A DNA stretch of 64,000 nucleotides from Liolophura sinensis (taxonomy: Eukaryota; Mollusca; Polyplacophora; Chitonida; Chitonidae): NCBI RefSeq assembly GCF_032854445.1, contig NC_088303.1, forward strand, positions 8,251,501 through 8,315,500, read 5' to 3'. Below the pieces are notes generated by a model. It ran no database searches. It had not been told where the DNA came from and was given only the letters and a program-made list of their open reading frames with translations. Positions 20,001 through 23,000 of the stretch are shown one piece after another (position 1 is the stretch's first letter; the number at the start of each line of letters is the position of its first letter). A program made the position numbers and the translations under genes.

Positions 20001-23000
20001 AGCGAGGACACCACAAATACATGTCTACAGGTAAGACTTTGGATGGGATATATGGCGTACCTTGAGATCTTTCTACAAATGGCCAAAGACGACAAGGAAG
20101 GGCACGGTCGCTGAGTGAGCAGAAGGAATTGTGGGATTGCTGCCCGCAGAGTTTTTTGACTGACAAACGACAGGAGCCTTGAAGATAACATAGCATCCTC
20201 CAGTGACTTCAGATCAAACTGTTACAGCCCCCCAGTAAACACACTGTCACAGGCCTAGCCTCTAGAACACCAACAACCTACCCAAACATACAAATAGTCA
20301 GTCTTACACACTTTTTAACTGCGATTATTACTTGTGACATCGGCTTTGATACACAAAAAAATTATTTAACATGGAAGACAAGACTTGCTATTTTTAAAAA
20401 ATTTCAGTGAAACAAGAGCTTGCCAAGCTGGCATAAAGGTTTAGTTCTTATGTCCCACGGAAAAACTCTTCTGCATTTAGTATCAAATGGACTAAAACTT
20501 CTGCATTAGAACATGAATATTTTGATTGTTGTGCACTGTAAAACTGATTCACTGATTCACTGATAAAGAATCAGGTGAAATTTGATGTTTTCAACTTTTC
20601 TAGCTTCACTTGTACATTTGATCTATATAATACCTCATTTTTTTCATGTGATTGGATTCATTTCATTGGATTGGTCATATTGAAGAAATGTAACTCACTG
20701 AATTCTTCTTGTTCTTATCATATACAATGGTTAATAATAGCGAGTGGGTCTTCACTGACGCGAATGATTAAAGTACTGAGCCTGTCGCCTTTGGGCAGCC
20801 ATTGAGGTCGCTCATTCAAATCCATCTCTTGCTGCTTCGGCTATGATGTAAGTCAGTTGATATGTCAGGCATCGGGCCAAAAAAGGCAAACCTTTTGTTT
20901 CCATGTATAAAAATCTGTCACTCATGAGTTAACTATCCTGCAACTACAGGGCAAAGTCTCCAGTTCTTTTTATTAGATTCTACGAAATATAACACAAAAC
21001 ACATAATCATTTAGACAAAGACTGGATTTCTTGAAATCAGTTCTACCACAAGACTGCATGGGCGTATACATGGTTAGTCAGACACATATCTGGATTCAAG
21101 TTTACTTTCAGTTTCTTAGAAAACCACATGAAAGGCAGAATACATTTCCAAGAATTACATTGTCTGAGTGGCCTACTTCTACAGCAATCCTATTATATAA
21201 AATGTGCATACATGCTGTAATTGATACGCATACACAACCATCATTCAAAGTTCTAAAAGCCTCCTCTTGCTGCTTCGGCTATGATGTAAGTCAGTTGGTT
21301 TGTCAGGCAGCGGGTGAAAGGAAGATATATATGTACTCATTGCACTGCCATTTCTTATATATATACAGATGTAAAGGATTCCACGCATTCCACACCAATG
21401 AATTAATTAAAAGCAATGTAAAATTATCAATAACAGATTTCTTTGAAAACTATTACAATGTAGCAAGCACTTTACAAAAAAGGAAAACATTTTGTTTCCA
21501 TGTATAAAAATCTGTCACTCATGAGTTAACTGTCCTGTAACTACAGGGCAAAGTCTCCAGTTCTTTTATTAGATTCTGCGAAATATAACACAAAACGCAT
21601 AATCATTTAGACAAAGACTGGATTTCTTGAAATCAGTTCTACCACAGACTGGAATTAGTACACTTATCTGGATTCAGGTTCAATTTCAGTTTCTTAGAAA
21701 ACCACATGAACGGCAGAATGCATTTCAGAGAATTACATTGTCTGCAGTGGCCTACTTGTACAGCAATCCTATCATACAGAATGTGCATGCATGCTGCACG
21801 TGGTATGCATTCACAACCATCATTAAAAGTTCTGAAAGCCTCCTGTCGTGCAACTAGTCCTGAATTTCAAAACTTACACAGAAGTCTGACACTCATATTA
21901 TATAAATGAATACTTATGAGTCATATATTCTAATATTTACAGATTTGTCAAATTTTACTTGACTGTCATGACTAATGAACTTAGACCCACATCCTCTTGA
22001 AAAAGTTTAATGACAGGAAATAATCAAAGGTAATATGGCTACAAATCTATAAACGAATCAGGTTATCTTCACGAGTGTATGACATAAAGAAGGACTCAGG
22101 CAAACTGTGCTAGCATTCTTTTGATATTTATTTATCAGGCATATGAACTGATGGCCAGAAAAACAGTCTGAAAATTCTTAAGAAAGTCTGAAAATACATC
22201 ATCCTACCTCCAAGTTAATTTAGCAATCCCGTTCTGACAAAATCAGCTGGATTTGTTTTGTTTTTCAGGAAATTTACACAAAACAATGGAAATTTCCACG
22301 CCTGATTTATTTGTTTCATTGGTGTTTTACTTTTCACTTTTCCCCAACATTATGGTGGAAGGAAACTGTGCAGAGCCTGGGGGGAAATTCACAACCAGCT
22401 GCAGGTTGCTGGCAGAACTTCCCACAGACAGCCGGAGATGAAGTAAGCATGAACTGGACTCGAACTCACAGTGACCACAATGGTAGGATGATCCTGGGTC
22501 ATTGTGACGCGCTGGCGTGCTAAACACCTCGGCTACAAGCATTCTTTTGTAAAATCTTACACACGACAGCTATATTGAAGTTAGTCAACATGAATTTGAC
22601 AACCCTGTTTACAGAATCAAGATAATTCCATAATATTTTAGCCAGGGACACACTAGACAGATTTTTTGCTCATAAAGGCATATTATGTGAATTTCTAAAA
22701 ATCTGCCTAGTGTGTTGACGACGGCGACAGCATATTTTGTTGGTGATTTTGTCCACCCCGAAATTCGCTTGCATCAAACATGTCAGATACTGGCAAAGAA
22801 ATATGCCGGCGATTTCACTCTGTCCGCGTAGTGTGTTTGTTCCATTGAATTTCGGGGATCGAGCTGACCAATCAAACACAGTGGAACTGTGTTCACTTTC
22901 AACATTTTGTTTGTGTTACATGGTTTACTAGGTCAAACAATCAACGGAAAAAATCTGCTTAGTGTGTCTGCAGCTATACTGAGAATATAGTCAGAATATT

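What the first reader, a model, noticed from the sequence alone, without database searches (positions are those of the whole stretch)
20061..20218. Hidden exon that would give KARS1 a mitochondrial isoform
Seen: inside the 6.5-kb first intron of KARS1 is a 43-codon frame whose peptide is basic and free of D/E, followed by a splice donor in phase 2, exactly the phase needed to enter exon 2 (giving S-EQKRRLK). Seen: if exon 1 is spliced to the acceptor at 20219, the cytosolic ATG becomes a 13-codon upstream frame ending 17 bases before the mitochondrial ATG. Known: mammalian KARS1 makes both enzymes by including or skipping an exon at this position. Inference: the same switch exists in this invertebrate, so one gene serves both compartments and a short upstream frame may set the ratio.
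Basis: partly seen in the sequence, partly recalled or inferred. Interest (0 to 1): 0.72.

Follow-up and report, generated by a model that had tools for sequence, protein, structure and literature searches.

The report
Mitochondrial first exon of lysyl-tRNA synthetase
In a mollusc-like genome, the one gene found for the enzyme that loads lysine onto tRNA carries, inside its first intron, a very plausible optional exon that would send the enzyme to mitochondria, much as is already known for the human and medfly genes.

Summary
The window holds most of an intact KARS1 gene, minus strand (14 coding exons, 574 aa). Its 6,547-bp first intron contains a 43-codon frame (20191-20063) with 6 K/R and no D/E, ending at a phase-2 donor that ranks third of 440 GTs in the intron. 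Joined to exon 2 it gives ...[12 protein letters not shown], a 607-aa precursor. Intron 1 lies exactly where human cytosolic and mitochondrial LysRS diverge. No second LysRS was found, while the mtDNA carries a predicted tRNA-Lys, so this gene very probably must make a mitochondrial enzyme. Chance gives such a frame in 0.4-1.7% of shuffled introns. Codon usage gives no support. No RNA and no relatives could be examined. The switch, including the stop it brings for exon-1 translation, is published for human KARS1, and LysRS isoform splicing is published for medfly: a new member of a known kind.

The parts
24134..24165 (-). KARS1 exon 1, coding part: cytosolic start ATG (24165-24163), [10 protein letters not shown] + 2 nt, phase-2 donor
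   Evidence: start context A at -3, G at +4
17587..24133 (-). KARS1 intron 1 (6,547 bp), at the position where human cytosolic and mitochondrial LysRS diverge
   Evidence: and PMC7589778 passage
20061..20218 (-).
20063..20191 (-). 43-codon presequence frame, no D/E, 6 K/R, followed by AG and donor gtacgc
20194..20196 (-). Out-of-frame ATG 5 bases upstream of the mitochondrial ATG (A at -3); opens a 95-codon frame that overlaps the LysRS frame
20209..20211 (-). TGA that ends the 13-codon frame started at the cytosolic ATG if exon 1 is joined to 20218
17457..17586 (-). KARS1 exon 2, first shared exon (EQKRRLK...)
16905..17070 (-). KARS1 exon 3
16590..16683 (-). KARS1 exon 4
15049..15131 (-). KARS1 exon 5
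14395..14498 (-). KARS1 exon 6
12869..12994 (-). KARS1 exon 7
11751..11870 (-). KARS1 exon 8
10990..11152 (-). KARS1 exon 9 (class II catalytic core)
6707..6966 (-). KARS1 exon 10
4769..4854 (-). KARS1 exon 11
1887..2013 (-). KARS1 exon 12; exons 13 and 14 lie beyond the window start, at window coordinates -2087..-2230 and -2822..-2911

Best explanation
The segment is an optional coding exon of the only LysRS gene found in this animal. When it is skipped, exon 1 joins exon 2 and the cytosolic enzyme (574 aa) starts at 24165. When it is included, the exon-1 start becomes a short upstream frame that stops inside the exon. Ribosomes that leak past it, or re-initiate, start at 20191 and make a 607-aa precursor with a basic, acid-free presequence that directs LysRS to mitochondria. 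Shown here: gene, frame, phase, donor strength, intron position, no second LysRS in the searches made, and a predicted mtDNA tRNA-Lys. Inferred: exon inclusion, the exact 5' end of the exon, start-site choice, and import. A shared promoter with cassette splicing is favoured over a separate promoter. The confidence of 0.82 is for a real mitochondrial exon in either form: about 0.69 for the cassette form described here plus the 0.13 of the first rival.
For: Intact KARS1, 13 of 13 introns GT-AG (the assembly script allowed only GT-AG). The 5 TIGR00499 matches in the genome are all this gene. No class I LysRS. tRNA-Lys(TTT) predicted in the 15,209-bp mtDNA. Intron 1 lies after N11, aligned without a gap from residue 4 with N21 of the 597-aa chain 6chd_A; human isoforms share 576 residues and the cytosolic one has 21 of its own. 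Human leader 49 aa by 625 minus 576 (PMC7600831 says 46), here 44 aa with the junction serine. Donor third of 440; only basic acid-free frame of 8; 4-17 per 1000 by chance. Same layout published for human KARS1. For one shared promoter: CpG observed/expected is 0.99-1.12 at 24.5-23.8 kb and 0.24-0.48 at 20.6-19.9 kb.
Against: No transcript data. No relative's genome to test conservation. Acceptor 20219 is mediocre. An out-of-frame ATG with A at -3 sits 5 bases upstream of the proposed start, whose own context is G at -3 and T at +4. The frame's synonymous codon score (0.05 per codon) lies below all 13 KARS1 pieces (0.08-0.48; these were also the training data), and 18.6% of 161 other open frames do as well; its full codon score is -0.24 against 0.13-1.04 for KARS1 pieces, and 40% of the controls do as well. 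GC by codon position does not follow the KARS1 pattern. Of the 161 control frames, 4 are as basic and acid-free. CpG content is also fairly high (0.79) at 23.0-22.6 kb, so the promoter argument is soft.
Confidence: 0.82

Rival explanations
1. The exon is real but is an alternative first exon with its own promoter near 20.3 kb, not a cassette spliced to exon 1; the cytosolic ATG is then never upstream of it and no 13-codon uORF exists.
For: The acceptor at 20219 is weak. Medfly LysRS is described with exons 1a and 1b (PMC12280921 passages).
Against: CpG depletion at 20.6-19.9 kb (observed/expected 0.24-0.48) against 0.99-1.12 around exon 1. Stronger acceptors at 20261/20259 exist. The human gene uses a cassette exon.
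Confidence: 0.13
2. The frame is a chance open frame, and the mitochondrial LysRS is made some other way (another exon in intron 1 or further upstream, a non-AUG start, or a cryptic signal in the cytosolic enzyme).
For: Codon usage gives no support. There is an out-of-frame ATG 5 bases upstream. No RNA or conservation evidence.
Against: No other ATG frame of at least 20 codons in intron 1 with a phase-2 donor scoring at least 5 is basic and acid-free. Looser candidates have donors of 0.5-4.1. The exon-1 frame has no upstream in-frame ATG before a stop 11 codons away (read). Chance rate about 0.4-1.7%.
Confidence: 0.14
3. This animal does not need a mitochondrial LysRS isoform: a second gene exists in an assembly gap, or charged tRNA-Lys is imported.
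For: G000 runs of N may hide genes (task and tool caveat). Trafficking of charged tRNA has been suggested for worms (PMC5091859 passage).
Against: The mtDNA carries a predicted tRNA-Lys. [quoted passage not shown] Only one LysRS was found.
Confidence: 0.03

Closest known systems
Human KARS1 exon 2 (mitochondrial LysRS by alternative splicing; Tolkunova et al. 2000, not held; seen only as passages of PMC7600831, PMC4394549, PMC8251883 and PMC8123711)
   Same: Single gene; optional exon in the intron at the same protein position; including it introduces a stop for exon-1 translation and a downstream AUG that starts a presequence; leader of similar length (49 or 46 aa in human by the passages, 44 here).
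   Different: Splicing is proven in human and only inferred here. The leader sequences were not compared by any search. An extra out-of-frame ATG 5 bases before the start is seen here; it was not checked in human.
Ceratitis capitata LysRS exons 1a/1b (PMC12280921, passages)
   Same: Invertebrate; one gene; cytoplasmic and mitochondrial isoforms by alternative splicing of exons 1a/1b; confirmed by cDNA.
   Different: Order, phase and uORF arrangement of the medfly exons were not read, so homology of the exon was not tested.
Danio rerio hars exon 2 (PMC5608375, passages)
   Same: Works alike: a retained exon ends the exon-1 frame and supplies a new AUG with a mitochondrial signal.
   Different: A different synthetase, so not the same gene family.

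Membership tests
Cytosolic/mitochondrial dual-use animal LysRS (KARS1) | Complete class II eukaryotic LysRS coding sequence | tested here: met
   574 aa, 14 exons; best solved match 6chd_A, E 4.7e-267
Cytosolic/mitochondrial dual-use animal LysRS (KARS1) | No separate mitochondrial LysRS gene | tested here: met
   12 of 12 PF00152 matches outside this gene score best as AspRS or AsnRS; TIGR00499 only here; no class I LysRS. Assembly gaps remain a caveat
Cytosolic/mitochondrial dual-use animal LysRS (KARS1) | Mitochondria have a tRNA-Lys to charge | tested here: met
   Predicted tRNA-Lys(TTT) at C632 c13660-13726; a second Lys call at c10833-10903 lies inside COX1 and was discounted; the bacterial-mode run found none
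KARS1 mitochondrial cassette exon | Lies between exon 1 and the first shared exon, at the point where the isoforms diverge | tested here: met
   with PMC7589778
KARS1 mitochondrial cassette exon | Frame and donor phase allow fusion to the shared exon | tested here: met
KARS1 mitochondrial cassette exon | Inclusion stops translation from the exon-1 ATG and offers a new ATG | tested here: met
   6 of 7 acceptors tried give a 12-17-codon uORF; the one at 20206 does not
KARS1 mitochondrial cassette exon | Basic, acid-poor leader peptide | tested here: met
   Net +6, no D/E in 43 residues
KARS1 mitochondrial cassette exon | Recognisable mitochondrial presequence (amphipathic, called by a trained predictor) | tested here: inconclusive
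   Amphipathicity is ordinary: 29.8% of 161 control frames equal or exceed it; no trained predictor was available
KARS1 mitochondrial cassette exon | Usable splice acceptor | tested here: inconclusive
   20219 weak; 20261/20259 better
KARS1 mitochondrial cassette exon | Coding signature | tested here: inconclusive
   Codon usage does not separate it from non-coding frames and is below the KARS1 pieces
KARS1 mitochondrial cassette exon | Spliced transcripts with and without the exon | not testable with these tools
   No RNA data held
KARS1 mitochondrial cassette exon | Conservation in related species | not testable with these tools
   G000 has no relatives here (note); the other collections are of prokaryotes, viruses, phages and plasmids, and metagenome scans were capped at 0 (tool descriptions)

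The most novel reading that the evidence does not exclude
The exon-1 / mitochondrial-exon / shared-exon arrangement, at one intron position and with the exon-1 start turned into a uORF, dates from the common ancestor of molluscs and vertebrates. In this animal a second gate has been added: an out-of-frame ATG 5 bases before the mitochondrial start, so that scanning ribosomes must leak past two starts and mitochondrial LysRS output per mRNA is held low.
Probability: 0.3. Interest if true: 0.42.

Novelty: new member of a known kind. Interest (0 to 1): 0.22.

Why it matters
[quoted passage not shown] A mollusc with the mitochondrial exon at the human position would suggest that the splice switch is ancient and retained rather than reinvented. 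It would also give an annotation lesson: short presequence exons in long first introns are easily missed (my judgement, no call).

Tried and rejected
Repeat origin of the exon: rejected, one DNA match in the genome and one place for the leader peptide (whose other match is exon 2). The duplicated blocks in intron 1 (20.8-21.9 kb) and the two related repeat copies near 22.5 and 23.3 kb do not touch it.

Separate LysRS gene: looked for with PF00152, TIGR00499 and TIGR00467; none found.

N-terminal extension of exon 1 as the presequence: rejected, no in-frame ATG upstream before a stop 11 codons away (read).

Other presequence frames in intron 1: none of at least 20 codons with a phase-2 donor score of at least 5 that is basic and acid-free; the looser list is.

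Coding-potential test: no support.

tRNA search of the mtDNA with the session's ARAGORN (bacterial code) found 0 genes in either piece; the mitochondrial modes in the Python box were used instead.

Structure prediction, covariance models and scans of the viral and prokaryote collections were not run, because I judged that they could not bear on an animal intron.

Papers: searches. None of their listings showed a title or abstract start describing this exon in a mollusc, but the lists are capped and most subscription papers, including Tolkunova 2000, are not held. All papers cited were seen as passages found by term, none in full.

Full report
What was checked. On the minus strand, the cytosolic ATG is at 24165, exon 1 ends at 24134 in phase 2, intron 1 runs 24133-17587 (6,547 bp), and exon 2 starts at 17586. 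Inside the intron the frame 20191-20063 reads [43 protein letters not shown], followed by AG and the donor gtacgc; fused to exon 2 it continues S-EQKRRLK and gives a 607-aa protein. The script printed exon 1 one base late because I gave 24164; searches use 24165.

The gene. With the stretch before the window fetched, tblastn with a recalled human LysRS found 13 exon matches. A splice-aware assembly that allowed only GT-AG introns gave 14 coding exons, 13 introns, 574 aa, and 383 of 574 aligned residues (66.7%) identical to the recalled sequence. The best solved relative by sequence is 6chd_A (597 aa, E 4.7e-267).

Position. In the PDB alignment residues N11-E12 here fall on N21-E22 of the 597-residue enzyme, without a gap from residue 4. 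Human cytosolic and mitochondrial LysRS share 576 residues, and the cytosolic form has 21 of its own (PMC7589778 passage). The human isoforms therefore part exactly where intron 1 lies here. The human mitochondrial form is 625 aa (PMC8251883 passage), so its own part would be 49 aa, of which a 30-residue targeting sequence is cleaved (PMC5863373 passage); PMC7600831 gives 46 aa instead. Here the own part is 44 aa. The phase of the human junction was not looked up.

Need for a mitochondrial form. PF00152 gave 17 exon matches at five places: 5 in this gene and 12 elsewhere. All 12 elsewhere score best as aspartate or asparagine enzymes (7, 5; stretches). TIGR00499 gave 5 matches, all in this gene, and class I LysRS gave none. 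The mitochondrial DNA is on C632 (15,209 bp) and in tandem on C99. ARAGORN in mitochondrial mode predicts tRNA-Lys(TTT) at c13660-13726; a second Lys call inside COX1 was discounted. PMC4558845 (passage) infers loss of the separate mitochondrial LysRS in the animal lineage. PMC4826098 (passage) lists one fly LysRS gene for both compartments, and PMC9593246 (passage) one worm gene.

Chance. A donor profile from the gene's own 13 donors gives the candidate 7.86; 3 of 440 GTs in the intron score as high, itself included. Of 8 ATG frames of at least 20 codons ending at phase-2 donors scoring at least 5, only this one is basic and acid-free. Shuffled introns yield an equally good frame of at least 35 codons in 8 of 1000 (dinucleotide) and 4 of 1000 (order-4 Markov); for at least 20 codons the counts are 17 and 5; with the donor bar lowered to 5 they are 55 and 59. 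Real tiles of the window gave 0 of 18 (plus) and 0 of 11 (minus, 24301-64000) for at least 35 codons, 0 of 18 and 2 of 11 (one frame, overlapping tiles) for at least 20 codons, and 2 of 18 and 3 of 11 with the donor bar at 5. Thresholds were set on the candidate, and no acceptor was required. The profile rests on 13 sites.

Results against. Codon usage does not separate the frame from other open frames: 18.6% of 161 controls equal it on synonymous choice and 40% on the full score, and it lies below all 13 KARS1 pieces on both (which were the training data). Amphipathicity is ordinary (29.8% of controls). 4 of 161 controls are as basic and acid-free. The acceptor at 20219 scores 3.4, below 20261, 20259 and 20243, although real KARS1 acceptors range from 0.2 to 13.7. 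The ATG at 20196 has A at -3 and opens a 95-codon frame that overlaps the LysRS frame. The mitochondrial ATG has G at -3 and T at +4. The cytosolic ATG has the strong A/G context. In an exon-1-containing transcript a ribosome must therefore pass two starts or re-initiate.

Mechanism. The likeliest reading is a cassette exon. Skipped, it gives the cytosolic enzyme; included, it turns the cytosolic start into a 12-17-codon uORF (6 of 7 acceptors tried) and supplies a presequence. [quoted passage not shown] CpG observed/expected is 0.99-1.12 over exon 1 and 0.24-0.48 over 20.6-19.9 kb, which favours one shared promoter; but 0.79 at 23.0-22.6 kb shows that the measure is noisy, and that CpG content marks the promoter is inference. 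Splicing, start choice and import are not shown.

Novelty. Medfly LysRS makes cytoplasmic and mitochondrial isoforms by alternative splicing of exons 1a/1b, confirmed by cDNA (PMC12280921 passages), so an invertebrate case is in print. This is a new member of a known kind. What would be of interest is the age of the arrangement and the double start gate.

Organism. Read on the reverse strand, the mtDNA has the tRNA run M-C-Y-W-Q-G-E, discussed as a cluster in chitons, most of which keep the inferred ancestral molluscan order (PMC7003433 passages). Mollusc, perhaps a chiton, is my inference; no call names the species.

Noticed in passing
window 20878-21265 and 21475-21844: Intron 1 holds a direct duplication 578-597 bp apart (four blocks of 83-99 nt, 87-98% alike), upstream of the candidate exon and not including it.
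   Followed up: partly
window 4902-6117 and 7232-9624: Two large minisatellites inside KARS1 introns 10 and 9: 32-bp unit x 38 copies (94% matches) and 52-bp unit x 46 copies (92% matches); a 19-bp array lies in intron 4 at 15991-16522.
   Followed up: no
window 32755-33165 (-) and 48946-49299 (-): Upstream neighbour on the same strand matches SYO1-like TPR repeats (PF25567, E 7.9e-22). The frame at 49 kb looks to me like the first exon of HEATR3 (recalled, no call); Pfam gave no match there.
   Followed up: partly
window 56595-57719 (-): Tc1/mariner-like transposase in two adjacent frames (PF13358 DDE_3; PF01498 HTH_Tnp_Tc3_2). Two frames further on, at 59.6-60.2 and 63.3-63.7 kb, gave no Pfam match.
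   Followed up: partly
window 32694-32764 (-): Marginal Rfam tRNA match (31.3 bits, cut-off 29), not confirmed by ARAGORN.
   Followed up: partly
G000 C99: A contig of tandem mitochondrial genome copies (7 COX1 matches 15.4-15.6 kb apart) beside the 15,209-bp C632; probably an assembly concatemer.
   Followed up: no
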